Shown: positions 12,117-44,167 of the stretch, in pieces | Layout: every line of letters begins with the position of its first letter | Position numbering within the stretch: position 1 is the stretch's first letter | IMG/VR virus record: IMGVR_UViG_3300020437_000013 | Span: 1-44,167 of that record | Direction: 5' to 3' (one strand) | Length of the DNA: 44,167 nucleotides | DNA from: a virus | Made by a program: the position numbers and the translations under genes | The notes under the pieces: model-generated | The model's database searches: none | Told to the model about the DNA's origin: nothing | What the model saw: the letters and a program-made list of their open reading frames with translations, nothing else

Positions 12117-13886
12117 ATGGCAGCACCTGATTGGTCAAATACTACACAAGAATTATTAAAAACATCACAGTATCCAAATAATACTGAGTTTTCATTTGGT
12201 ACTATCAGAGCAGCGATAGGAGATACATCAAAACCTATTTCTGCGTCAGAATTGTATAGAGTTACAGATATAGATGCACCATATAATTACCCTGCACACC
12301 CAACAGCATCCACACCACATCTACCATATATTTTAGATGCTGTAGAGAATGTTGGAGTGCCTACAAGTGGTGCTATATCTCCTCAAGATGTAAAGAATAT
12401 AATAAAAGAGTATGTCATAGAACAAGACCCAAATGCAACTGAAGTACAATTTGATGCAGGTACATTAGTAGGTTCTGGATATACTGTCTCAAATGTAAAC
12501 TGGGGAAATAATCTCAATAGAAATATTACCAAATATCTTAAAATTAGAGGTAGAGTAGTTAGTCCTGATACTTCAATCCCTGCTGTATCCATAGCTAGTT
12601 CTGCATCATCTAATCTTAATCTATTTGTTAATAATTCCCCTGCAGGTATGGGTATCATGGCAGCAGGTGGTGTTAAAGGTTCTGGATCAGGAACTGATGG
12701 TGGTCATGCTATATCAATAACAAATCCCTCTGCACCTGCATCAAGGGTTGTATTTGTAGAGTGTGAAGGAACAACCTCTAAAATATGGGCAGGAGGTGGT
12801 GGAGGTTTTGATGGTATAGATGGTACAGACGGTGTTGATGGAAGTGCTAATGTGTCACCAGGTCAGGCAGGTGTTGATGGTCAACCTGGCGTTGATGGTC
12901 AAGCAGGTACACCAGGTCAACCAGGTTCATCAGGTCAAGATGGAATAGATGGCACACCAGGTTCATCTGGTCAACCAGGTCAACCAGGTCAGCAAACATG
13001 GATTTCATACAACTGGCAAAGAGTTACTACTACAGTACAACAAACTATTCTGTCTTATACTCAAAACACATCAAGACGCAGAGAGTGGTGGTCAAGGTAT
13101 CCTAGTAACCAGTCTACTACACAAGCAACACAACAAACTGCAAATGCTCAACAGTCACAGCAATATGCTATCAATAATCGTGTTGCTATGGCAGGTGGTC
13201 TTGGTGGACAAGGTGGCTCTGGTGGAGGAAAAGGTGCAGGTGGTGGAGCAGGTACTGGTGGACAAGGAGGAAGTAAAGGATTAGGTGGTCAGGGTGGACA
13301 AGGAGGTCTAGCTGGACAAGGAGGTTATAATGGAGTTAAGGGTGTTAAAGGAATAGCAGGCTCTGGGAGTGCAGGTAGAGGTTGGAATAATCTAACTGGA
13401 ACTCTAAATTCCTCTGGTGGTACACCTGGCACACAGGGTACACCTGGTGGTGCAGGGACACCTGGCACACCTGGTACTGCTGCAACTCAAGCAACTCAAG
13501 GGACACCAGGTCAACCAGGTACACCTGGTGGTTCTGGTACTCAAGGAAATCCTGGCACAGCAGGACAACCAGGTCAACCTAAACAGGGTGGTGCTGCTAC
13601 AGATGGTCAACCAGGTCAACCAGGTACACCTGGCACACCTGGTACAGATGGCACAGATGGTGGTGATGGTACACCTGGTACACCTGGCACACCTGGTCAA
13701 CCAGGTACACCTGGCACACCTGGTGGAGATGGACAACCTGGTACACCTGGCACACCTGGTCAACCTGGTGTTGCAGGTGGAGACTGGGGTAAGACGAATC
13801 CTGGTGGAGGTGCTGCAGGTAGAGCTGTGTCTGGTACACCTTATCAAGTTATCCCAAATGGAGGAGACATTCGAGTTATCTACTAA
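12117..13886 (+). CDS. collagen-like tail-fibre protein (589 aa)
   Basis: An N-terminal domain of about 225 residues (MAAPDWSNTTQELLKTSQYP) precedes three low-complexity regions. Block 1 (residues about 230-291) is Gly-X-Y with GQP, GVD and GTP triplets. A Trp/Gln-rich spacer follows (SRRREWWSRYPSNQ), then a Gly-rich block near residues 360-420 (GGQGG type), then a long Gly-X-Y block (435-555) dominated by GTP and GQP triplets. The C-terminus is a short cap (QVIPNGGDIRVIY). Nearly every proline is in the Y position, that is X-Pro-Gly, the context used by collagen prolyl 4-hydroxylases. Collagen-like domains form triple-helical fibres in many phages. The next gene, eight bases downstream, encodes a PKHD-type hydroxylase. 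Confidence 0.85.
   Translation: MAAPDWSNTTQELLKTSQYPNNTEFSFGTIRAAIGDTSKPISASELYRVTDIDAPYNYPAHPTASTPHLPYILDAVENVGVPTSGAISPQDVKNIIKEYVIEQDPNATEVQFDAGTLVGSGYTVSNVNWGNNLNRNITKYLKIRGRVVSPDTSIPAVSIASSASSNLNLFVNNSPAGMGIMAAGGVKGSGSGTDGGHAISITNPSAPASRVVFVECEGTTSKIWAGGGGGFDGIDGTDGVDGSANVSPGQAGVDGQPGVDGQAGTPGQPGSSGQDGIDGTPGSSGQPGQPGQQTWISYNWQRVTTTVQQTILSYTQNTSRRREWWSRYPSNQSTTQATQQTANAQQSQQYAINNRVAMAGGLGGQGGSGGGKGAGGGAGTGGQGGSKGLGGQGGQGGLAGQGGYNGVKGVKGIAGSGSAGRGWNNLTGTLNSSGGTPGTQGTPGGAGTPGTPGTAATQATQGTPGQPGTPGGSGTQGNPGTAGQPGQPKQGGAATDGQPGQPGTPGTPGTDGTDGGDGTPGTPGTPGQPGTPGTPGGDGQPGTPGTPGQPGVAGGDWGKTNPGGGAAGRAVSGTPYQVIPNGGDIRVIY
12804..12990 (+). repeat. collagen-like Gly-X-Y coding repeat, block 1
   Basis: Nine-base units encoding GVD, GQP, GTP and GSS triplets are repeated in frame. 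This block is more varied than the second and is interrupted once by ANVSP. Confidence 0.8.
13419..13781 (+). repeat. collagen-like Gly-X-Pro coding repeat, block 2
   Basis: Highly repetitive DNA built from GGTACACCTGGC and GGTCAACCTGGT type units encoding GTP and GQP triplets. It includes non-triplet breaks (TAATQATQ, KQGGAATD). The near identity of units suggests recent expansion by slippage or recombination, and repeat number may vary between relatives. Confidence 0.85.
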
Positions 13887-13894
13887 ATTACATT

Positions 13895-14494
13895 ATGGCA
13901 TATTATCCTATATTACCCACTCCCACATATGATGAGTGTGACTATGCAACTTGGGAGGGTGGATTCACATCTGATGAGTGTAACAGAATTATTGAAATTG
14001 GAGAATCATCTGATGCTATGAACTCTACAGTTGGTGCAGATGAATCAAGTCAGAGAGCAAATACAGAAATAAGAAAGTCTTTGAACTCATGGATAGGACT
14101 GAATAAAGATACTGAGTGGATATATCAAAGGTTAGGAAATATATGTAGAAGTCTAAATGGATTGCATTGGAGATTTGATATATCAGGATTCGCTGAAGAT
14201 TTGCAATATACAAGATATAATTCTGATGGTTGTTTTTATGGTTGGCATATAGATAATGGTGTAAAGGGTTCTGAATACCCACAACGAAAATTAAGTATCA
14301 CTCTACAGTTATCAGATGCATCTGAATACGAGGGTGGTGACTTTCAAATTCACTCTAGTAAACTTTCAACACTTCCAAAAGAAAAGGGTCTAGTAATTGC
14401 GTTTCCTAGTTACTCATTACATCAGGTCACACCTGTTACAAAAGGAAGTAGAAAAAGTCTGGTAGTATGGTTATGTGGAAAACCATTTCAATAA
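13895..14494 (+). CDS. PKHD-type 2OG-Fe(II) oxygenase, prolyl 4-hydroxylase-like (199 aa)
   Basis: Expected to use 2-oxoglutarate, O2 and Fe(II) to hydroxylate a protein side chain. The iron-binding triad is visible: His118 and Asp120 in FYGWHIDNG and His176 in FPSYSLHQVTPV, with Arg186 positioned to bind 2-oxoglutarate. EYEGGDFQIH between them is typical of the PKHD/PiuC branch, and the length fits a stand-alone catalytic domain. It sits eight bases downstream of the collagen-like fibre gene. The proposal that it hydroxylates the X-Pro-Gly prolines of that fibre is inference from adjacency and chemistry. A host target is the alternative. Confidence 0.85.
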   Translation: MAYYPILPTPTYDECDYATWEGGFTSDECNRIIEIGESSDAMNSTVGADESSQRANTEIRKSLNSWIGLNKDTEWIYQRLGNICRSLNGLHWRFDISGFAEDLQYTRYNSDGCFYGWHIDNGVKGSEYPQRKLSITLQLSDASEYEGGDFQIHSSKLSTLPKEKGLVIAFPSYSLHQVTPVTKGSRKSLVVWLCGKPFQ

Positions 14495-14495
14495 C

Positions 14496-14545
14496 TGTCA
14501 CAAGTGGACTCACACAAAGGGTACAAAATTTGCTATAATAGAGGT
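14496..14545 (+). promoter_or_regulatory. TGTC-box promoter
   Basis: TGTCAC (14496) lies 38 bases upstream of TATAAT (14534-14539), which is followed by AGAGGTAT. The promoter ends almost at the ATG (14546), so the transcript may be nearly leaderless. Confidence 0.6.
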
Positions 14546-15718
14546 ATGAAAAACACACATCTCGAACACTTAGAAGATAATATTCTCAATGGTTCTCCTA
14601 AAGAAACCATAGATTTTCTCAAGTCTTTCGGTCATATGCTGACTGGCAAGAAGTCTAATCTAAAGATAAGTACCAAGTGGGATGGTTCACCTGCTATCGT
14701 GTGTGGTATTGACCCACAGACTGATAGATTCTTTGTTGGTACTAAATCAGTATTCAATAAGTTCAATCCTAAAGTTTGTTATACAGAGACAGATATAGAT
14801 TTATATTATTTTGCACCAGAAGATGAACAGTTAGCAAATAAACTTAAAATATGTCTTAAGTATCTACCTACACTAGGTATCAGGGGTATGGTTCAAGGAG
14901 ACTTGTTATTCACTAATGATACACAATATGCAAATTTAGATGGAGAAAGATATATTACATTTACACCTAATGCTATTACCTATGCAGTTCCCGTTGACTC
15001 TCTCAAGGGCATCAGTATCACAGAGGCAGAGTTAGGTATAGTATTTCATACAGTTTACTTAGGAGACACCATACAGACCTCTACAGCAGGGGTAAATGCC
15101 AAATTAAGGATACCTAGCACAAAAGAATGTTATGTTGCAGATGCTAATTTTGTAGATGAGTCAGGTATTACTAAGTTCAATGTTCGTGATAGTGCTAAGT
15201 ACACTGCTCTTATTAACAGAGCATCAGGTTCAATTCACAAATCAAAAGAGTTTTTAAAACTTATACATGACTATGGCACATCTAAATTCTTGATGGCAAC
15301 ATTGTTCAAACAGTTTTTCAATGAGAGAATTAGAACAGGTCAAGGTATTGTAGATACCCAGAGAGTCGCAGGAGACTTTGCATTATTCTATGCTAGAAAG
15401 ATGGACATAGAAATTCTATCAAAGAAAACAGAGACAACTAAGAAAAAGTATGAGTATATGAAGAAGATGGGTTTGAAATTTATAGAAAAATATCAGTTAG
15501 AAATTTATTTTGTTGTTGCTTCTTACATCTCAGTTCGTAGTGCTAAGAAGATGGTATTAAGTCAGTTGAATAAGGTAGATAGAATAAAAACTTTCGTTAA
15601 CAAAATTCCTTCACAACCAGAGGGATATGTGGTATCATATAATGGTACTAACCTAAAATTTGTTGATGATGATTTTAGGCAAGCAAACATCACTGTTGTA
15701 AAATCATGGACAAAGTAG
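14546..15718 (+). CDS. nucleotidyltransferase-like protein with a KWDG motif (390 aa)
   Basis: STKWDGSPA (Lys44-Gly47) matches motif I (KxDG) of the covalent nucleotidyltransferase superfamily that contains ATP-dependent DNA/RNA ligases and capping enzymes. GMVQGDLLF (about 115-122) is placed like motif III. EGYVVSYNG (from Glu359) followed by LKFV resembles motifs IV and V, with an unusually long helical insert between. An OB-fold domain is not evident. It resembles phage proteins of unknown function that carry a KWDG-type motif. An upstream in-frame ATG at 14504 exists, but the codons between encode the promoter, so 14546 is chosen. The substrate is unknown; adenylation of RNA, DNA or protein are all possible. 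Confidence 0.65.
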   Translation: MKNTHLEHLEDNILNGSPKETIDFLKSFGHMLTGKKSNLKISTKWDGSPAIVCGIDPQTDRFFVGTKSVFNKFNPKVCYTETDIDLYYFAPEDEQLANKLKICLKYLPTLGIRGMVQGDLLFTNDTQYANLDGERYITFTPNAITYAVPVDSLKGISITEAELGIVFHTVYLGDTIQTSTAGVNAKLRIPSTKECYVADANFVDESGITKFNVRDSAKYTALINRASGSIHKSKEFLKLIHDYGTSKFLMATLFKQFFNERIRTGQGIVDTQRVAGDFALFYARKMDIEILSKKTETTKKKYEYMKKMGLKFIEKYQLEIYFVVASYISVRSAKKMVLSQLNKVDRIKTFVNKIPSQPEGYVVSYNGTNLKFVDDDFRQANITVVKSWTK

Positions 15719-15984: not shown

Positions 15985-16099
15985 TTACAAATTAATTAAG
16001 ATGTGTATTAGAATGGTGTTCGAGAAACGATCTGAAGCATCAGCAGAGGAAATTATAAGAGAAGCAAAAGAACTTTATGATGAATTGATGAATTTATGA
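15977..16099 (+). CDS. small helical protein (40 aa)
   Basis: Reads MNDYKLIKMCIRMVFEKRSE and ends AKELYDELMNL, an amphipathic helix pair. Starts eight bases before the previous stop (an ATG at 15974 adds one Met) and ends with an ATGA overlap to the following oxygenase. The function is unknown. Confidence 0.55.
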   Translation: MNDYKLIKMCIRMVFEKRSEASAEEIIREAKELYDELMNL

Positions 16100-16692
16100 T
16101 TACACCAATAGCACAGAAATTTAAAGTCTTTGATGATTTTATCAGTCCTACATATCAAGATATCATAGAACAATTATTGCTGAGTTCAAAAATTCCTTGG
16201 AACTGGCAGGATTCAATGGATTATAAAACAATGGATAAGAGAGGTGGAGGATATCCACAGTTCGTTGTTGATGTATTTGAAGATGGAAATGTATTTGATA
16301 CATCACTCTATCACACTATGATAGGTTTAATGAGTAAAGTGGTAGATGATGTTTTACCAGATTACAGACCAATAAGGATTAGAGGTATATTACAAACACC
16401 AATAAAAGATGACATAATACATTATCCACCACATACAGATACAACTGACTCTGGAGGATTTAGTGCCATATATTATGTTAGTGATGCTACTGGAGATACA
16501 TTCTTATTTAAAGAGAAAGATATTAATGATGAGATAGGAATAGAAAACAGATTTGAATATAAGTGGGAACCAATAGATCGTATATCTCCAAAGAAAGGTA
16601 GATTAATTGTATTTCCATCTAATTTTTATCATGCAGGTTCTCCAACTGAGAGTCAAAGACGAGTGCTAATAAACTTTAATTTTATGTCCTAA
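16096..16692 (+). CDS. 2OG-Fe(II) oxygenase (198 aa)
   Basis: The double-stranded beta-helix motifs of Fe(II)/2-oxoglutarate dioxygenases are present: His113-x-Asp115 in PPHTDTTDSG, distal His179 in FPSNFYHAGSP and Arg189 for 2-oxoglutarate in QRRVLINFNF. FSAIYYVSDATGDTFLF between them is typical of the prolyl-hydroxylase-like branch. It differs clearly from the PKHD protein 1.6 kb upstream, so it is not a recent duplicate. It is coupled to the preceding small gene and lies directly upstream of two halogenase-like genes. The substrate is unknown. Confidence 0.8.
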   Translation: MITPIAQKFKVFDDFISPTYQDIIEQLLLSSKIPWNWQDSMDYKTMDKRGGGYPQFVVDVFEDGNVFDTSLYHTMIGLMSKVVDDVLPDYRPIRIRGILQTPIKDDIIHYPPHTDTTDSGGFSAIYYVSDATGDTFLFKEKDINDEIGIENRFEYKWEPIDRISPKKGRLIVFPSNFYHAGSPTESQRRVLINFNFMS

Positions 16693-16700: not shown

Positions 16701-18077
16701 ATGAGAAAAATTGCGATTGTAGGTGCTACACCTGAGTCATTCATACAGTTGGCATTGTTAGTAAATAACAGAAGGTATGATGGCAAAGAAAAATATGGTG
16801 ATGATGAGTTCACCCTAATACATGACCCTGACAAAGTATATCCATATATGCTAAGTGGTATAGGAGTTGCATTTCAAGAAGTATTAGAAAGAGAAATATA
16901 TTTTACAAAAAGGTGGTTGGATAAGTATTGTGACGGTGTAGATAGTTGTGGATATAAGTATGTTGGTTGGGGTAACAGGAGAGATAAGAACTTTATGGTA
17001 ACAGGTTGTAGCAATACATTTGATATTGAAAAATTTAGACATCATTTCTTAGAAGATGGTGGTAAAATATTTGGAAAAAATGTAAGTATAATACAACAAA
17101 AAATAGATTCATTTTCTGTTACTGATGATAAGTGTTTAATTAATAATAATGAATATGATTATGTGATAGATTGCACAGAGAAAAATCCATTAGGTTGGGA
17201 AATGGATTATATGCAACCTAGTGTGACATTTAGTAATAGTGCAATAATGATAGAGATACCAGAAAAGGGACACTGGAATTATACTATTGAATATGCTGCT
17301 AAACATGGTCACATAGTAGGTTTACCATTGCGTGACAGTCAAAGATGGATATACTTATATGATAATACTATTTCTCATGAACTAGAGGTAGTAGAGGATT
17401 TTAAAGAGATATTTCCTAATTTTAAATTTGATGAGACAGTCAATGGTGGACAAAGAACATTCTTTTATAAAGAACACTCATGGATACCACACATATCAAA
17501 TTATATAATCCACCCTGAGAACAAAAGATATATGCGAAATGGTACTGCATTATTAAACATAGAACCTGCAAGTCCTGGAACCAGTGCAGAATCAACACAT
17601 TTTATTGCAGAGCAAATATGTAGATATCTTTATAATGATAATGCTAGAGAAAGAGAGGTGCATGACCATATGTTACAGTTACAATATGGTAGTTATATTA
17701 TACAAACTTTGCAGTCTTTTTTATGTTTTACTTATCAATATGGTTCGAGACATGACACACCATATTGGAATAGAATTAAAGAGGAAGCAACTGAGTACTT
17801 AAACAGTCCGATATTCTCACATCCTGGAGCATTTACAGGAAATAATTTCTTAGATAAAATAGTAAGTGATACATTTACGGAAGAAGATTTTAGAATAGCA
17901 CATCATTCACAAAATGCTAGTGGAGAATTAATACTACCATATTCTTGGATGAATAATTCAAATATGTTTTATGAGTATTCAATAGGTTTAGGTAGTCCGT
18001 ATGCACATTTATTATCAACTATGGGGGAGACTGACCCGCCAGAACCATTTGGAACAATAGGGTATGATTGCGTATGA
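16701..18077 (+). CDS. divergent flavin-dependent halogenase-like protein (458 aa)
   Basis: Overall length and layout follow tryptophan-halogenase-type flavoproteins: a beta-alpha-beta opening MRKIAIVGATPESFIQLALL, an internal YDYVIDCTEKNPLG strand and a late NIEPASPGTSAEST segment like the conserved flavin-contacting loop. Key elements are eroded: the dinucleotide motif lacks its glycines (GATPES instead of GxGxxG), and the WxWxIP motif appears replaced by QRWIYLYDN. It may be a non-catalytic partner of, or a specialised paralogue to, the intact-looking halogenase it overlaps by four bases. The family assignment is motif-based. Confidence 0.6.
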   Translation: MRKIAIVGATPESFIQLALLVNNRRYDGKEKYGDDEFTLIHDPDKVYPYMLSGIGVAFQEVLEREIYFTKRWLDKYCDGVDSCGYKYVGWGNRRDKNFMVTGCSNTFDIEKFRHHFLEDGGKIFGKNVSIIQQKIDSFSVTDDKCLINNNEYDYVIDCTEKNPLGWEMDYMQPSVTFSNSAIMIEIPEKGHWNYTIEYAAKHGHIVGLPLRDSQRWIYLYDNTISHELEVVEDFKEIFPNFKFDETVNGGQRTFFYKEHSWIPHISNYIIHPENKRYMRNGTALLNIEPASPGTSAESTHFIAEQICRYLYNDNAREREVHDHMLQLQYGSYIIQTLQSFLCFTYQYGSRHDTPYWNRIKEEATEYLNSPIFSHPGAFTGNNFLDKIVSDTFTEEDFRIAHHSQNASGELILPYSWMNNSNMFYEYSIGLGSPYAHLLSTMGETDPPEPFGTIGYDCV

Positions 18078-19576
18078 ATATAGTAATAGTTGGAGGAGGT
18101 ACATCTGGATTAGTTACTGCTGCATTATTCAATGTATTTTGGAAAGATAAAGTAAATATCTCATTATATTATAATCCAGAGAATCAAAGTATAGGTGTAG
18201 GGGAGGGAACTACACCTAGTTTTATTGATGTGTTTAATGAAACTTTGGGATATAGTACAGAAGATGCTATCAGAGAATTAGATGCAACAATTAAGTTAGG
18301 TGTATTGTTTAAAGATTGGATTCCAGACACAGAATACTATCATGGATTTGTGGAAGTTGCGAATGATGAGACAAATAATAGAAGTGATAAGTTATCAAGT
18401 AATGTAAGTTCATTTTATTCTATGTTAAATGGACATTATAATGGTGGTATCAATTTCAATGAAGCAACCAATACTATACCTACTGAATTAGATAAACATG
18501 ACTTTGCGTTTCATATAACCACAAATAAATTATGTGATTTTCTGTTTAAATATCTCAAGGGTAGAGTAAACATCATAGAAGATAAAATAAGTGATGTGAA
18601 TACTGATGGTAAAAATATACAGAGTATTATATGTGAAAAAAGTGGAGAAGTAAGTGCAGATTTATTTGTAGATGCAACTGGACTTGATGCTATGTTACTT
18701 AACAAGTTAGATGGTGCAGAGTGGGTAGATTTATCCCAGTATTTACCATTAGATAGGGCAATACCACAGAAGATAAAAAATAATAGTGATTTTATTCCAA
18801 GTTATACACTAGCAAATGCAACTAAACATGGGTGGATTTGGCAAATCCCGTCACAAAATGAATATGGTACGGGTTATTTGTATTCATCTAAGTTTACTAC
18901 TGATGAAGAAGCAAAAAATGATTTCAATAACTGGTTAAATATAAATCACTCAGAAAAATTAAGTGAAGAACCTAGAATAATTAAATGGAATAGTGGGTAT
19001 CAAAAAAGAGCATGGATAGGTAATTGTGTAGCAGTAGGTTTATCAGGTGGATTTATTGAACCATTAGAAGCATTAACTCATCAATATCTAACCTTTATGG
19101 TAGAAACATTTATGAGTTTAAATTCTACTCTTAAAATGTTAGATTACAATAGAGATAGATTCAATATGGTTCAGAATAGAATATTATTTGACTACACACA
19201 GTTTTTAAACCTACACTACTGCACAAATAGAACTGACTCTAAATTCTGGAAACACATGAGAGATAATAAAACTGACTGGGTAAAAACTATGGAGGAGAAG
19301 TTACAACATGAATTTTTAGATGTATTTGATACTGATGATATGTTAGATTACTGGGGAAATGATAATTACATACAGGTAATGAAAGGTATCAATTTGTTTA
19401 ACACTAAAGCAATCGAGGATTATATGTGGTCAAGAAAAAATCCAGAATTATTATATGAAGATGCTAAACAGCAACATGACTATATCGAGGATTATAAAAG
19501 TAAAACTGTTATGGTAGATCATAAGGAATATCTTGAGACAATAAAAAAATCGTCACACTTACCCTACCTAGTGTAA
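18074..19576 (+). CDS. FAD-dependent tryptophan-halogenase family protein (500 aa)
   Basis: Expected to use reduced flavin, O2 and chloride or bromide to halogenate an aromatic ring. It has the FAD-binding GGGTSG near residue 10, the family GVGEGTTPSF loop, a lysine at about 74 in ATIKLGVLFKDW at the position of the catalytic Lys of PrnA-type enzymes, and the diagnostic WxWxIP motif (GWIWQIP). Near the C-terminal side, GLSGGFIEPLEA matches the conserved flavin-pocket loop. The length is normal for the family. The ATG at 18074 overlaps the previous stop; a TTG at 18068 would add two residues. The gene needs a flavin reductase, not seen here, so a host reductase is implied. Substrate unknown. 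Confidence 0.8.
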   Translation: MNIVIVGGGTSGLVTAALFNVFWKDKVNISLYYNPENQSIGVGEGTTPSFIDVFNETLGYSTEDAIRELDATIKLGVLFKDWIPDTEYYHGFVEVANDETNNRSDKLSSNVSSFYSMLNGHYNGGINFNEATNTIPTELDKHDFAFHITTNKLCDFLFKYLKGRVNIIEDKISDVNTDGKNIQSIICEKSGEVSADLFVDATGLDAMLLNKLDGAEWVDLSQYLPLDRAIPQKIKNNSDFIPSYTLANATKHGWIWQIPSQNEYGTGYLYSSKFTTDEEAKNDFNNWLNINHSEKLSEEPRIIKWNSGYQKRAWIGNCVAVGLSGGFIEPLEALTHQYLTFMVETFMSLNSTLKMLDYNRDRFNMVQNRILFDYTQFLNLHYCTNRTDSKFWKHMRDNKTDWVKTMEEKLQHEFLDVFDTDDMLDYWGNDNYIQVMKGINLFNTKAIEDYMWSRKNPELLYEDAKQQHDYIEDYKSKTVMVDHKEYLETIKKSSHLPYLV

Positions 19577-25155: not shown

Positions 25156-25596
25156 ATGGGTAAACCAACTGGACAAATGCAAGAAGCGACTCAAGAGAAA
25201 CTAGACGGTCTTAATTTACTCTACAACTGGGATTATAATGAAATGTGTAGGTTTATTGAGAATTTTTCAGAGGAAGAGTTCAGAGATCATTATGAAACAT
25301 ATCACAGATTATGTGAAGATTATAGCAAAGAGTTGGTAGATAATTTCGGAAATCACTTTGACATGGACGCAGAAGCATTTGAACATTTTGAAGAATTGTA
25401 TCAAGGTCACTATGAGACAGGTGGAGACTTTGCAGAATCCATTTGTCAAGAACTTGGTTACATAAGAGATTTACCTGCATGGGTTTCAGTTAATTGGCAG
25501 GAGACATGGGATAATGCATTATCATACGATTACTTTGAAATTGACTGCGATATGTCTGATTACACTTATGGTCACATATTCAGAAACAGTTGGTAA
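25156..25596 (+). CDS. ArdA-like antirestriction protein (146 aa)
   Basis: ArdA proteins are acidic DNA mimics that block type I restriction enzymes. The C-terminal half shows the family pattern: EELYQGHYETGGDFAESICQ, LPAWVSVNWQETWDN, LSYDYFEID and a terminal GHIFRN. The whole protein is strongly acidic. It is shorter than the three-domain plasmid ArdA, having an N-terminal helical part in place of the first domain. Its location directly after an orphan DNA methyltransferase fits a restriction-evasion module. A second, divergent copy lies at 31807-32241. Confidence 0.75.
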   Translation: MGKPTGQMQEATQEKLDGLNLLYNWDYNEMCRFIENFSEEEFRDHYETYHRLCEDYSKELVDNFGNHFDMDAEAFEHFEELYQGHYETGGDFAESICQELGYIRDLPAWVSVNWQETWDNALSYDYFEIDCDMSDYTYGHIFRNSW

Positions 25597-34760: not shown

Positions 34761-34942
34761 ACAAAACATATCACATCTACTTTGAGGATAAGTGTTTGTT
34801 TAAGAACCTAGATCAGCATGAATTTGATGTCATCTGGGGGAGAATCTATAGATCTTACCATACAGATAGTATTACATATGAATGTGTTGGTACAGATTGT
34901 GACATTGTTGATAGTGGTGTTTTAGCAGATGCTTCGTACTGA
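34757..34942 (+). CDS. small hypothetical protein (61 aa)
   Basis: MNKTYHIYFEDKCLFKNLDQ then HEFDVIWGRIYRSYHTDSIT, ending DSGVLADASY. The pattern (YxIYxxDKCLxxxLxxxEFxxxW) resembles short proteins seen in T4-like cyanophages. Coupled to the AbrB-like gene (ATGA) and overlapping the next by 14 bases. Confidence 0.65.
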   Translation: MNKTYHIYFEDKCLFKNLDQHEFDVIWGRIYRSYHTDSITYECVGTDCDIVDSGVLADASY

Positions 34943-35522
34943 AGGTTATACATGGGGTCCTTACCTGTGGCGAACTACAATACCTTGGGATGTAGTTAGT
35001 GTAATACTTAAGAGGGCGAACTCTTATCGTGGTGAGCATACTGCTACACCTATGCTACCTTTTAACTTTGATGACCAATGGCATCTACCTAAAGACACAC
35101 AGGATTGGTTCTGGGGGATCTTTAAACCCCATCTTAAAAAGTATTTGGCAGGTTATAGTCGGCACAATCAATTACCTGCTCCTACCGATGATGATATAAG
35201 TAACTGGGCATTCGACCATATATGGGTTAACTACTACAAAGAACATGATATGACAGCACTCCACAATCATGTAGGAGACTTGTCTATTGTGTTGTACCTA
35301 CAAATACCTACCTATACGGACAAGGTGCTTGGAACTGCTCCTGCACCTGGTTCTATCACATTCTCATGGGGAGACTCTAAGAAGACATTTGAACCAAAGG
35401 AAGGAGAGTTGTTTATATTCCCATCAGGTTTACATCATATGGTGATGCCACATAAGACTAAGGGTGCAGAAAGAGTATCCTTATCAGCAAACCTCTACTA
35501 CAACGCACCTTTTCATGGATAG
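34929..35522 (+). CDS. 2OG-Fe(II) oxygenase-like protein, PF13759-type (197 aa)
   Basis: HDMTALHNHVGDLSIVLYLQ, PGSITFSWGDSKKTF and GELFIFPSGLHHMVMPH match the putative 2OG-Fe(II) oxygenase family seen in T4-like cyanophages. Candidate iron ligands are in HNH (112-114) and the distal His of GLHH, with an Arg in AERVSLS for 2-oxoglutarate. An H-x-H occurs where other families have H-x-D. The N-terminus (YTWGPYLWRTTI) matches that of the next gene, so the pair arose by tandem duplication. Confidence 0.75.
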   Translation: MLRTEGYTWGPYLWRTTIPWDVVSVILKRANSYRGEHTATPMLPFNFDDQWHLPKDTQDWFWGIFKPHLKKYLAGYSRHNQLPAPTDDDISNWAFDHIWVNYYKEHDMTALHNHVGDLSIVLYLQIPTYTDKVLGTAPAPGSITFSWGDSKKTFEPKEGELFIFPSGLHHMVMPHKTKGAERVSLSANLYYNAPFHG

Positions 35523-39683: not shown

Positions 39684-42600
39684 ATGATAGAAACTTACAG
39701 TCCACTATCTTCAAGGGTTAAGACCTATCAAGTTGTCGGAGATCAAACTCCAGAGTTTGCAAAGGCAGAAAACCCACTATTAGAAGAATTTCTAAAGCAA
39801 TATTACATATCACAGGAACATCAAGGTGGTTCTCTTGATATTGGGGAGAATATTGACAAATATATTAAAATTGATAACTTAACAAAAGAAGTTGTAGCAG
39901 GAGTAGCTACTGTTGCATCTGGTATTGACTCTACAACCGATACTATAACAGTTTCCCCTAATACCAAAGGATTTCCACAGGAATATGGTCTTCTAAAAAT
40001 TGACGATGAGATAATAACATATACAGGAGTAACTACCAATACATTTACAGGATGTACAAGAGGGTTTAGTGGTATTACAACATACCGCACTGTTAATGAC
40101 CCATACAATCTAACATATACATCAACTACACCTGCTGAACACGATTCTGGTGCAAATATACAAAATTTAAGTGCATTATTTCTACAAGAGTTCTATACTA
40201 AGTTAAAAGCACAATATACACCTGGTTTAGAGGGTGTTACACTAAGTCCTACACTTGATGTTAATAATTTTATTAAGGAAGCAAGAAGTTTATATGAATC
40301 TAAGGGTACTGATGAGTCATTTAAGATTTTATTCAAAGCATTGTTTGGTTTAGAACCAAAAATTAACGATCTTGAACAATATCTGATAAAACCATCATAT
40401 GCCAACTATTTGAGAAGACAATCCTTTGCTGTTAGGGTAATATCGGGTGATCCTCTCAATTTAATCGGTCAAACTCTATACCAAGACAATGAAGTAGGTA
40501 ATGATTTAGTAAATGCTGCATCAGGACCTATTTCAGATGTTGTACAGATAAGAGATGACTATTATCGCATATCTGTCTTTATTGGTTTTGATGATAGAGA
40601 CTTAATTGAAGGTAATTTTGTAATACCAGGCAAAACACAGGCAATTGGCACTATTGGAATAGGTGCAACTGTAATTACTGTTGATTCTACCATAGGATTT
40701 GGAAAAACAGGCACTTTCCAAGTAGGAGTAGCTGATGACTCGTTCTATCAGACATTAGACTATACAGAAAAGACTGTAAACCAGTTTATTGGTGTTACAA
40801 CTGCATTAAAAGAGATTCCATCAGCAACTGAGTTATATGCACCTACTTTAGTCTATGGATTTGAAAATAATGACTTAAGTAAGAGAGTCAACATGAGATT
40901 GACTGGTGTAATTAGTGGTTTTGAGTCTTTACAGAACTTATATGGACTAACTGAGCAATCTCGCATTCAAGTTAAGAATTTAGGAAGATATGTCAAGAAT
41001 CCACCAACAGATCAGACATATTCACAAGTATTTTTCAATTCTTGGATTTATAACACTAGTGCAAGGTATGAGATAGAGCAATTCTTTGGAACTACCTTTA
41101 CTTTAAAGGGAAGAATTGATAAAGCAAGTTTAAAGAAGAATGATACCGTAGAAATCGTTATCAGAAACACCCAGACGGTCGTTCAGACGGGTTTAAATGT
41201 AAACTTCGTAAATACTGCACTAAATCAGGTAACGCTCTCAGGAACCTTTACAGCAGGGTCTGGTATTGACTATGATATAAGAAGAGTTCAAGAAAAAGCA
41301 AGTAGTTCAACGGTTGAGGTCATTGGTGGACAAAATCAGATACTTGCTGATGTAACTAACACTTATATTCTTGATGCTAAGTATTCTCCTACTGATTTAA
41401 AGGAAGGTTATGTAGCATCTAACTCTATTCCTTCATATGACATCATAACTGAGAAAATAACTGCAACATTAACAGATCCTAAGATAGGAAATGCTGATTT
41501 TGAAGGATACGATGTTTTAACCAATAGATACACAATTTTATCATTTTCTAGCAGTGTACCCTTTAAAACTGGGGAAGAAATTTCATATGTGCCACGAGGT
41601 AACACTGTACCGATTGGTGGACTAACTAGAGCATCATTTTTTGTAGAAGTATTAGCACAAAACAATAAAATTAAGTTATATCAGTCAAGATCGTTTATTC
41701 CGTCTGGAATATCGGTTGGATTTGTCCCTACAGAGCTTCCTACAGGAATTCATGACTTTGTTCGTGTAGAACAAGCAAGAAAGTCTATTTTTCCTTCTGG
41801 AACACTTAAAAGGTTTATTTTAGATCAAAATCTAACTGATGGTACAAAACCAAAGACAACATCTGAACCAACACAGACTGGAACAACAGGAATGTTGATT
41901 AATGGTGTTGAAATCACAAATTACAAATCTGACAAGAATATATTCTTTGGACCTGTAAGATCTTTCGATATAGTCAATGCAGGTGACGGATATGATGTTT
42001 CATTCCCACCTTCAGTCGGTTTTGAGACTAGTACGACTGGTATCAACACTGCTTATGGTAGAGTATCAGTTGCAGGTACTGTTACTGGTATTTTAGTAGA
42101 TCCTGTTGAATATGAGATTAAAAATGTAGTATCTGTAGATATTCATGGTGGAAATGGATCTGGAGCAAGAGCAGAAGCAATAACAGAACTAGCATACAGA
42201 TCACTTACTTTTAATGCTAAAAAGTTTGCAATAGGTGGTGATATTGATGTTTCATCTGATAGATTCATTTTAGATAAAGAACATTTCTATAAAACAGGTG
42301 ATAGAGTAATATACAATGCAAATAACAACAATCCAATAGCACTCTCTACTAGCACTGCTATTGGTGTTGATACTGGTCTTGTACAAGGTCAATCTTACTA
42401 TGTTGGTGTTGCAGCAACAAATATATTCCAAATTTACAGAAATAAGACAGATGCGGTATCAGGTGTCAATACAATAAGTTTTGGTTCTACTGCAGGTGAT
42501 TCTAACATTGGTATTCATCAATTTGACGATTATGAGACTAAAAGAAGAATATCTAGAATTGCTATAATTGATAGTGGATCAGGTTACACAAATAGAAAAA

Positions 42601-44167
42601 TATCAGTAGATCCTGCAGGAAGTATTGGTGGAATCAGCACTGTTAGAGATTTTATAGAATTTCCTAATCATGGATTTAAAGATGGCGAAGTTGTTCATTA
42701 CAGCACAGACGGAGTTGGAATTACTGGTTTATCAACAACTGCACAATATCAAGTATTAACAATTGACGACCATAGTTTTAGATTATGTAATTCTGGTTTA
42801 GCAACTACAAGACTACCCGATCAAACAAATTATCTTAATAAGTTATATACTAGATTTGACTCTACTGGTACTGGATATCAAAACTTCTTTTATCCTGCGG
42901 TAACTGTTGATGTCAATGTTGTTACCAGTGATGATGCTAATAGAACTATAGAAGCATTCCCTATTGTTCGTGGTAAAGTTGTTGACACTATCCTTTATGA
43001 TGAGGGTCGTGATTATGGATCTGATATAATAAACTTTGAGAAAACACCTATTGTAACTACAAATTATGGTGAGTTAGGTCAAATTGGATTAACCATTGTT
43101 AATGGTAGAATAACAGATGCTTTCGTCCAAGCAGCAGGTCAAAACTATGACGGTCCTCCTGATCTAGAAGTTATTGGAGTAGGAACTGCAAATGGTGCTA
43201 GACTTCGTGCTATAATGAATGGTGGATCAATTGATAAAGTTAAAGTTCTAGCAGCAGGTGTTGGATATGCATTATCAACAACATCAGTCACAGTTCTCCC
43301 ACCAGGCAATGCTGCGACATTTGCTAGTAACATTAGAAAGTTAACAGGTAATAAATTTAAGACAAGTAAGACAGTTAATGGAGACTATCTGGGTGCTGTC
43401 GAGGGTGGATTGGCAATAGAAAGTGTTGGATATGGTGAGACAGTTAGAACTGTATTTGGTGATGATGGTGCAGGACATTCTCCAATCATAGGATGGGCAT
43501 ACGACGGAAACCCAATTTACGGTCCTTATGGATTTTCAGATAGAGATAATAATCAATCTGGTTCTAGAAGAATGCTCACTTCTTATAAGTTAGATGCATC
43601 TAGAGTTAAGAATAGACCTAGCACAACTGTATTTGAGCCAGGATACTTTACAGAAGATTATTACTATGATGCTAGTGGTGATTTAGATGAACACAATGGT
43701 AGATTCTGCAAGACACCTGAGTTTACTCAAGGAATATATGCATACTTTGCAACTGTAGATAACTTAGTCCAACCTGAGTTTCCATACTACATTGGTCAAA
43801 CTTACAGAGGATTCCCAATAGCAGAGAACATACAAGTAGGTAGTAAGATAAAACAAAGTAACTTTGATTTTGAAAACTCAGAATTAGTTAGAAATACAAA
43901 TCCATACAATATGTTTGGTAGTGGTGTATCATATGATTATGTGGTTCAACCATACAAATCAATCAATAATGTTGCCTTCCCTGACAGAATATTATCTGGA
44001 TCAATAGACAATATCAAAATTGTCCAACCAGGCGTAGGATATACCGTAGGTACACCGTTAACATTTGATAACGCAGATACTGGAGGTACGAATGCGTATG
44101 CTATTGTTAATCAAATTAACGGTCAACCTGTAAGTAAAATTAGTACAATCTTTAATAAGTTTGAGGA
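39684..44167 (+). CDS. large YHYH-domain structural protein, likely baseplate (partial, >1494 aa)
   Basis: Starts MIETYSPLSSRVKTYQVVGD and stays open to the window end, so the 3' part is missing. The N-terminal 250 residues look like a baseplate protein (FLKQYYISQEHQGGSLDIGE, later SLYESKGTDESFKILFKALF). Repeated GxGY...P units follow in the middle and later parts, with a NHGFKDGEVVHYS domain near 993. GHSPIIGWAYDGNPIYGPYG at about 1264 is the YHYH-domain signature. Position after gp6 matches T4 gp7, but sequence similarity to gp7 cannot be claimed. Known cyanophage relatives are annotated only as structural or YHYH proteins. Confidence 0.8.
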   Translation, partial: MIETYSPLSSRVKTYQVVGDQTPEFAKAENPLLEEFLKQYYISQEHQGGSLDIGENIDKYIKIDNLTKEVVAGVATVASGIDSTTDTITVSPNTKGFPQEYGLLKIDDEIITYTGVTTNTFTGCTRGFSGITTYRTVNDPYNLTYTSTTPAEHDSGANIQNLSALFLQEFYTKLKAQYTPGLEGVTLSPTLDVNNFIKEARSLYESKGTDESFKILFKALFGLEPKINDLEQYLIKPSYANYLRRQSFAVRVISGDPLNLIGQTLYQDNEVGNDLVNAASGPISDVVQIRDDYYRISVFIGFDDRDLIEGNFVIPGKTQAIGTIGIGATVITVDSTIGFGKTGTFQVGVADDSFYQTLDYTEKTVNQFIGVTTALKEIPSATELYAPTLVYGFENNDLSKRVNMRLTGVISGFESLQNLYGLTEQSRIQVKNLGRYVKNPPTDQTYSQVFFNSWIYNTSARYEIEQFFGTTFTLKGRIDKASLKKNDTVEIVIRNTQTVVQTGLNVNFVNTALNQVTLSGTFTAGSGIDYDIRRVQEKASSSTVEVIGGQNQILADVTNTYILDAKYSPTDLKEGYVASNSIPSYDIITEKITATLTDPKIGNADFEGYDVLTNRYTILSFSSSVPFKTGEEISYVPRGNTVPIGGLTRASFFVEVLAQNNKIKLYQSRSFIPSGISVGFVPTELPTGIHDFVRVEQARKSIFPSGTLKRFILDQNLTDGTKPKTTSEPTQTGTTGMLINGVEITNYKSDKNIFFGPVRSFDIVNAGDGYDVSFPPSVGFETSTTGINTAYGRVSVAGTVTGILVDPVEYEIKNVVSVDIHGGNGSGARAEAITELAYRSLTFNAKKFAIGGDIDVSSDRFILDKEHFYKTGDRVIYNANNNNPIALSTSTAIGVDTGLVQGQSYYVGVAATNIFQIYRNKTDAVSGVNTISFGSTAGDSNIGIHQFDDYETKRRISRIAIIDSGSGYTNRKISVDPAGSIGGISTVRDFIEFPNHGFKDGEVVHYSTDGVGITGLSTTAQYQVLTIDDHSFRLCNSGLATTRLPDQTNYLNKLYTRFDSTGTGYQNFFYPAVTVDVNVVTSDDANRTIEAFPIVRGKVVDTILYDEGRDYGSDIINFEKTPIVTTNYGELGQIGLTIVNGRITDAFVQAAGQNYDGPPDLEVIGVGTANGARLRAIMNGGSIDKVKVLAAGVGYALSTTSVTVLPPGNAATFASNIRKLTGNKFKTSKTVNGDYLGAVEGGLAIESVGYGETVRTVFGDDGAGHSPIIGWAYDGNPIYGPYGFSDRDNNQSGSRRMLTSYKLDASRVKNRPSTTVFEPGYFTEDYYYDASGDLDEHNGRFCKTPEFTQGIYAYFATVDNLVQPEFPYYIGQTYRGFPIAENIQVGSKIKQSNFDFENSELVRNTNPYNMFGSGVSYDYVVQPYKSINNVAFPDRILSGSIDNIKIVQPGVGYTVGTPLTFDNADTGGTNAYAIVNQINGQPVSKISTIFNKFE

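What the first reader, a model, noticed from the sequence alone, without database searches (positions are those of the whole stretch)
12117..14494. Collagen-like fibre followed directly by a PKHD-type prolyl hydroxylase
The 589-aa fibre has long GTP/GQP blocks in which nearly every proline is X-Pro-Gly, the context hydroxylated by collagen prolyl 4-hydroxylases. Eight bases downstream lies a gene with the full HxD...H...R iron and 2-oxoglutarate motif set of PKHD enzymes. Hydroxyproline stabilises the collagen triple helix, so the phage may make a post-translationally hardened tail fibre within a bacterium. The pairing of substrate and enzyme in one operon is the inference.
Basis: partly seen in the sequence, partly recalled or inferred. 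Interest (0 to 1): 0.8.

Follow-up and report, generated by a model that had tools for sequence, protein, structure and literature searches.

The report
Phage fibre paired with prolyl-hydroxylase-like enzyme
A marine phage carries a collagen-like fibre gene directly followed by a gene for a prolyl-hydroxylase-like enzyme; related phages keep the pair, but the fibre's four equal repeat blocks suggest it folds back on itself into a needle with a variable tip instead of forming collagen, and whether the enzyme modifies it is untested.

Summary
In detail: a 589-aa Gly-X-Y fibre (12117-13886; 30 of 32 repeat-region prolines are X-Pro-Gly, none Gly-Pro) and, 8 bases downstream, an intact 199-aa Fe(II)/2-oxoglutarate oxygenase (H118xD120...H176...R186). 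The pairing is conserved: 28/28 homologous fibre loci have the oxygenase downstream, and in a collagen-centred IMG/VR sample an oxygenase lies within 2 kb downstream in 10/90 loci and upstream in 0/106. Its predicted fold best matches protein prolyl hydroxylases (EF-Tu P4H, PHD2, PBCV-1 collagen P4H). But the wider oxygenase family mostly occurs in phages without collagen (15 of 16 isolate genomes), and the conserved block also includes DUF6267, so the substrate is unproven.

The 'collagen' reading is probably wrong. Across 24 homologues the fibre's four Gly-X-Y segments are nearly equal in length and change length together; two cysteines predicted to meet at the tip are present or absent together; the loop at the tip is the least conserved part; proline is excluded from X. 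This fits a folded-back, four-strand polyproline-II needle, like snow-flea antifreeze protein and S16 gp38 tips. Y-only proline is then a structural signature, not evidence for a hydroxylase. AlphaFold2 could not model the fibre.

The parts
12117..13886 (+). Fibre/adhesin gene, 589 aa, Gly-X-Y repeats with proline only in Y
   Evidence: PF01391 E 3.3e-12; Pro counts; 28 homologous loci
12117..12806 (+). N-terminal domain (aa 1-230), presumed virion attachment; no PDB, phage-collection or Pfam relative
   Evidence: 66% mean pairwise identity in the family; no significant hit
12807..12989 (+). Segment 1, Gly-X-Y, 61 aa (proposed strand 1, outward)
   Evidence: length co-varies with segments 2-4
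12990..13187 (+). Arg/Trp-rich loop, about 66 aa; proposed distal tip and receptor-binding site
   Evidence: least conserved region: 32% identity, 24% R+K, 10% aromatic
13188..13373 (+). Segment 2, GGx repeats, about 60 aa (proposed strand 2, return; core strand with two Gly faces)
   Evidence: 56% Gly; Gly also 69% of Y positions; its first residues carry the co-varying Cys in 19 of 24 fibres
13374..13583 (+). Conserved turn GRGWNN plus segment 3, GTP/GQP repeats (proposed proximal turn and strand 3)
   Evidence: RG invariant in 11 fibres; length equals segment 2 plus about 10
13584..13775 (+). Distal hinge plus segment 4, GTP/GQP repeats, 64 aa (proposed strand 4, return)
   Evidence: hinge carries the second co-varying Cys in homologues
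13776..13883 (+). C-terminal cap GGDWG...YQVIPNGGDIRVIY
   Evidence: most conserved region, 73% identity
13895..14494 (+). Fe(II)/2-oxoglutarate oxygenase, 199 aa, prolyl-hydroxylase fold
   Evidence: PF13640 E 5.7e-16; AF2 pLDDT 86.8; 4iw3 Z 20.9, 3gze 19.1, 5c5t 18.7; motif in 33/33 family copies
14504..15718 (+). DUF6267 gene (function unknown), next gene of the same conserved block
   Evidence: PF19782 E 2e-105; present in all 28 homologous loci

Best explanation
The fibre is a long, thin tail adhesin. After an N-terminal domain that presumably attaches it to the virion, the chain runs out as a Gly-X-Y polyproline-II strand (segment 1), makes an Arg/Trp-rich loop at the tip, returns as a Gly-rich strand (segment 2), turns at the base (GRGWNN), runs out (segment 3), turns again at the tip, and returns (segment 4) to a conserved C-terminal cap. 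The four strands pack antiparallel as a polyproline-II/polyglycine-II bundle, roughly 15-25 nm long in the family (about 0.31 nm per residue), and display the variable loop for receptor binding. The enzyme encoded 8 bases downstream has a protein prolyl hydroxylase fold and most likely hydroxylates this fibre during its synthesis, chiefly the Y-position prolines, stiffening and hydrating the strands. Shown by sequence: the pair, its conservation, equal and co-varying segment lengths, the co-varying cysteines, the intact active site. Shown by prediction: the enzyme fold. Inferred: the bundle, the tip role of the loop, and hydroxylation of the fibre. My estimates: folded-back bundle 0.8; the enzyme acts on the fibre 0.55.
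For: Segment lengths in 24 homologues: 48/48/59/51, 51/51/62/54, 61/60/70/64, 64/72/86/72, 82/81/92/84, 78/86/89/81 and so on, r 0.91-0.99 over 11 distinct combinations; phylogenetically independent contrasts r 0.76-0.99; a second set of anchors gives the same for segments 1, 3 and 4, r 0.96-0.98. Cys at the start of segment 2 and at the segment 3/4 hinge: both in 19 fibres, neither in 5. X-position Pro 0-2%, Y-position Pro 32, 1, 56 and 62% in segments 1-4. Snow-flea antifreeze protein, a solved polyproline-II bundle, has all 6 Pro in Y and none in X; phage gp38 tips are a known polyproline-II bundle (PMC8409303). Enzyme: fold matches to EF-Tu P4H, PHD2:HIF, algal P4H:(Ser-Pro)5 and PBCV-1 collagen P4H; active site intact in 33/33; downstream of the fibre in 28/28; an oxygenase downstream of Gly-X-Y fibres 10/90 versus upstream 0/106, p 3e-4; oxygenases sort on a tree by neighbouring fibre type, e.g. 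11/11 next to Y-Pro fibres in one clade.
Against: AlphaFold2 gave no usable fibre model (pLDDT 30, pTM 0.17), so the bundle rests on sequence covariation alone. The Cys change is probably a single event. The 28/28 linkage is partly inherited synteny: DUF6267 is present in 28/28 too. The wider oxygenase family lives mostly in phages without collagen-like proteins. Closest solved relatives by sequence are PKHD/PiuC enzymes of unproven protein substrate. Nothing here shows hydroxylation.
Confidence: 0.45

Rival explanations
1. Folded-back bundle, but the oxygenase acts on something else: a host protein (as P. putida P4H acts on EF-Tu), a small molecule (as may PiuC), or another virion protein. 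It sits beside the fibre because of inherited gene order in the tail module.
For: Homologues lie away from collagen genes, e.g. between uvsY and uvsW in P-RSM4 and in a cluster of oxygenases in HTVC008M; 15/16 isolate genomes with a homologue lack collagen; DUF6267 is equally conserved in the block; sequence nearest PiuC/PKHD.
Against: Recurrent, strictly downstream association with Gly-X-Y fibres in unrelated phage types; fold nearest to protein prolyl hydroxylases.
Confidence: 0.3
2. One reading: a true collagen triple helix whose Y-position prolines are hydroxylated by a phage prolyl 4-hydroxylase for thermal stability.
For: PF01391 match; Y-only proline is the P4H context; bacterial collagens without hydroxyproline put Pro in X and Thr in Y (PMC8968730), the reverse of this fibre; B. 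anthracis P4H prefers Y proline (same paper).
Against: Equal, co-varying lengths of four segments and co-varying Cys have no reason in four tandem triple helices; segment 2 is GGx with almost no Pro; no X-position Pro at all.
Confidence: 0.13
3. The enzyme acts on the fibre but not on proline: on Arg, Lys, Asn or Asp, for example in the Arg-rich tip loop.
For: Tip loop is 24% R+K; related 2OG oxygenases hydroxylate Arg, Lys and Asn (established knowledge); in another oxygenase clade the neighbouring fibres have Y-Lys (GQKG) and X-Pro instead of Y-Pro.
Against: Closest folds with known substrates are prolyl hydroxylases; the loop is the least conserved part, the Y-Pro the most regular.
Confidence: 0.12

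Closest known systems
Snow-flea antifreeze protein (PDB 2pne, 3bog, 3boi)
   Same: Gly-X-Y strands folded antiparallel; proline only in Y (6/6); cysteines between strands
   Different: Six short strands in 81 residues; here four strands of 48-86 residues; no detectable homology to the fibre in the search
Phage S16/T2-type gp38 tip adhesin (polyglycine-II domain)
   Same: Phage receptor-binding tip built of polyproline-II helices (PMC8409303)
   Different: Ten short helices in three layers, mostly glycine; here four long strands with Y proline; sequences not compared here
PBCV-1 collagen prolyl 4-hydroxylase (5c5t)
   Same: Virus-encoded prolyl hydroxylase fold, Z 18.7 to our model, 23% identity
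   Different: Virus of a eukaryotic alga; substrate activity measured there, not here
Pseudomonas putida EF-Tu prolyl 4-hydroxylase (4iw3)
   Same: Best structural match, Z 20.9, protein substrate
   Different: Acts on EF-Tu; 18% identity
PKHD-type hydroxylases YbiX/PiuC (3dkq, 9ghl, 9qn1)
   Same: Closest by sequence, catalytic half only (E 3e-11, 1e-8)
   Different: Below every NCBIfam cut-off; cellular iron-uptake context
Viral-AMG prolyl 4-hydroxylase suggestion (PMC9301287)
   Same: Proposed that viral P4H genes might relate to collagen in tail fibres
   Different: Says the use 'remains cryptic'; no gene pairing, repeat or fold analysis

Membership tests
Collagen (PF01391 triple helix) | Gly at every third residue over long runs | tested here: met
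   E 3.3e-12; run of 20 Gly at every third residue versus at most 12 in shuffles
Collagen (PF01391 triple helix) | Proline allowed in X (dominant position in bacterial collagens) | tested here: not met
   0 of 32 in the window; 0-2% over 24 homologues; bacterial norm from PMC8968730
Collagen (PF01391 triple helix) | Parallel trimeric triple helix | tested here: inconclusive
   AF2 monomer failed; co-varying segment lengths argue against
Polyproline-II/polyglycine-II bundle | Chain folded back into strands of matching length | tested here: met
   Matching and co-varying lengths: r 0.91-0.99; contrasts 0.76-0.99. The fold-back itself is inferred from this
Polyproline-II/polyglycine-II bundle | Solved or predicted bundle structure | tested here: inconclusive
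   pLDDT 30
Fe(II)/2OG protein prolyl hydroxylases | HxD...H iron triad and basic residue 10 after the distal His | tested here: met
   H118, D120, H176, R186 invariant; motif in 33/33 family copies
Fe(II)/2OG protein prolyl hydroxylases | Fold | tested here: met
   4iw3 Z 20.9, 3gze 19.1, 5c5t 18.7
Fe(II)/2OG protein prolyl hydroxylases | Hydroxylates peptidyl proline | not testable with these tools
   needs an assay or mass spectrometry
PKHD-type hydroxylase YbiX/PiuC | Family score over curated cut-off | tested here: not met
   41.8-71.4 bits versus 143-399

The most novel reading that the evidence does not exclude
A phage tail adhesin built as a self-folded, four-strand polyproline-II needle, hardened by its own dedicated prolyl hydroxylase: the first hydroxyproline-bearing bacteriophage virion protein that I know of, and one instance of a recurrent fibre-plus-oxygenase module in marine phages.
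Probability: 0.4. Interest if true: 0.85.

Novelty: new variant of a known kind. Interest (0 to 1): 0.62.

Why it matters
2OG oxygenases are among the common unexplained genes of marine phages, usually filed as metabolic genes. A fixed position downstream of Gly-X-Y fibres suggests that some are virion-maturation enzymes, which is directly testable in isolates. The fold-back reading also warns that a Pfam 'collagen' hit in a phage fibre can hide a different fold, and offers a long, regular polyproline-II rod as a natural design.

Tried and rejected
AF2 on the fibre with 11 homologues: pLDDT 30, discarded. Test whether Y-Pro fibres have the oxygenase more often than X-Pro fibres in the unbiased collagen sample: no clear difference (2/7 versus 7/50 with enough downstream sequence; coarser counts), so position-specific coupling is not claimed from it. 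PDB sequence search with the repeat region: top hit 8zxl (GAPGSQGAPGLQ repeats) and animal collagens, which reflect composition and not homology. N-terminal domain: no PDB or phage-collection relative. A bacterial origin: only two distant cellular homologues, with no Gly-X-Y neighbour. Alignment A2 was too diverse for a genome scan. Literature on phage fibre plus hydroxylase: only the general remark in PMC9301287; subscription papers could not be searched. In the second anchor set the value 89 for segment 2 in L333 and L335 is an anchor error (a Cys inside the loop was taken).

Full report
Observation. The fibre ORF (12117-13886, 589 aa) and the oxygenase ORF (13895-14494, 199 aa) are as described, 8 bases apart. 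In the repeat region 30 of 32 prolines precede Gly and none follows Gly; the run of Gly at every third residue (20) is far beyond shuffles (at most 12). The enzyme is a complete 2OG-Fe(II) oxygenase (PF13640, E 5.7e-16) with H118xD120, H176 and R186 invariant among 38 homologues. The window is a 44-kb IMG/VR phage contig with a T4-like baseplate wedge gene.

Enzyme. By sequence the nearest solved proteins are PKHD-type Sbal_3634 and PiuC, over the catalytic half only, and the curated YbiX/PKHD models are far from their cut-offs. An AF2 model (pLDDT 86.8) matches best to protein prolyl hydroxylases: P. putida P4H bound to EF-Tu (Z 20.9), PHD2 with HIF peptides (about 19-20), algal P4H with (Ser-Pro)5 (19.1), PBCV-1 collagen prolyl hydroxylase (18.7); PKHD/PiuC reach 17.9. 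These Z values are close, so the fold says 'prolyl-hydroxylase-like', not which substrate.

Is the pair more than chance? A scan with the fibre's N-terminal domain gave 28 loci (50-99% identity); all have the oxygenase downstream, at once in 27 and after an inserted ndhI gene in one (L346, same contig as L011). All 33 oxygenase copies keep the motif. But the whole block, including DUF6267, is conserved in all 28, so this is partly inherited gene order. An independent sample, Gly-X-Y fibres picked from IMG/VR by repeat pattern only, gives a same-strand oxygenase within 2 kb downstream in 10 of 90 loci and upstream in 0 of 106 (p 3e-4). On a tree of 76 oxygenases, neighbours sort by clade: 11/11 in the window's clade lie by Y-Pro fibres, 14 of 16 in another by X-Pro (GPT/GPQ, some GQKG) fibres, while most of a third clade of cyano- and pelagiphages have none. 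One Y-Pro member, L206, has a non-homologous fibre. Against an exclusive link: of 16 isolate phage genomes with a homologue, only S-PRM1 has a collagen match over the cut-off, and there it lies just upstream of the oxygenase.

Is the fibre collagen? Probably not. It has four Gly-rich segments separated by a 66-residue Arg/Trp-rich loop, a GRGWNN turn and a hinge. In 24 homologues the four lengths are nearly equal, apart from a constant offset for the turn, and move together: r 0.91-0.99 over 11 distinct combinations, 0.76-0.99 in phylogenetically independent contrasts. Four tandem triple helices would not need this; a chain that crosses the same rod four times does. Cys at the start of segment 2 and Cys at the segment 3/4 hinge are both present in 19 fibres and both absent in 5; in a fold-back they meet at the tip. 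The loop at that tip is the least conserved region (32% identity against 66% for the N-domain and 73% for the C-terminus) and rich in R, K and aromatics, as expected of a receptor-binding tip. Segment 2 is GGx, as expected of a strand packed on two faces.

Proline position. X is almost never Pro (0-2%), Y is Pro in 32-62% of triplets of segments 1, 3 and 4. This is the reverse of bacterial collagens, where Pro is in X and Thr in Y (PMC8968730). But snow-flea antifreeze protein, a solved polyproline-II bundle, shows the same rule, 6/6 Pro in Y. In such bundles some backbone N-H groups bond to neighbouring strands (PMC8409303); a residue whose N-H is so used cannot be Pro. That X is that position here is my inference.

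Mechanism. I therefore favour a self-folded polyproline-II needle with a variable tip, hydroxylated on Y prolines by the enzyme made next to it. The hydroxylation step is inferred from fold, fixed position and recurrence. The AF2 fibre model failed, so the bundle has no structural confirmation.

Novelty. Virus prolyl hydroxylases (PBCV-1), bacterial P4H and phage polyglycine-II tips are known separately; a general remark that viral P4H genes might serve collagen in tail fibres exists (PMC9301287). I found no report of the conserved pair or of a long four-strand polyproline-II adhesin, in a library that lacks most subscription journals.

Noticed in passing
window 16096-16692 and 34929-35522: Two further 2OG-Fe(II) oxygenases of other subfamilies (phrog_274, phrog_81) in the same window.
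   Followed up: partly
window 16701-18077 and 18068-19576: Two tandem tryptophan-halogenase-like flavoprotein genes, the first far more divergent (PF04820 E 0.0035 versus 1.8e-82).
   Followed up: no
L011 5439-5984 (same contig as L346): A cyanobacterial-type ndhI (TIGR00403, E 1.3e-93, over cut-off) inserted between fibre and oxygenase, suggesting a cyanobacterial host.
   Followed up: partly
L009 6621-7148, L011 6629-7150, L339, L340, L356, L357: A second, diverged copy of the oxygenase directly after the first in one branch of the family.
   Followed up: partly
L325 (S-PRM1), L038, L042, L217, L252, L264: Gly-X-Y fibres near X-clade oxygenases carry Y-position Lys (GQKG) with X-Pro, the classical lysyl hydroxylase context.
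   Followed up: partly
L038 3157-3708, L041 5231-5893, L325 3384-3992: Extra oxygenase-like and tail-assembly-like genes lie between X-Pro fibres and the oxygenase (read by eye).
   Followed up: no
L206 3753-7262: 1170-aa fibre with 188 Gly-X-Y triplets, Pro only in Y, unrelated to the window's fibre, with a sister-clade oxygenase downstream.
   Followed up: partly
window 39684-44165: 1494-aa open-ended ORF with a YHYH domain (PF14240, E 2e-25) next to a baseplate wedge gene.
   Followed up: no
window 25156-25596: Anti-restriction-like protein (phrog_36653, E 4.5e-30).
   Followed up: no
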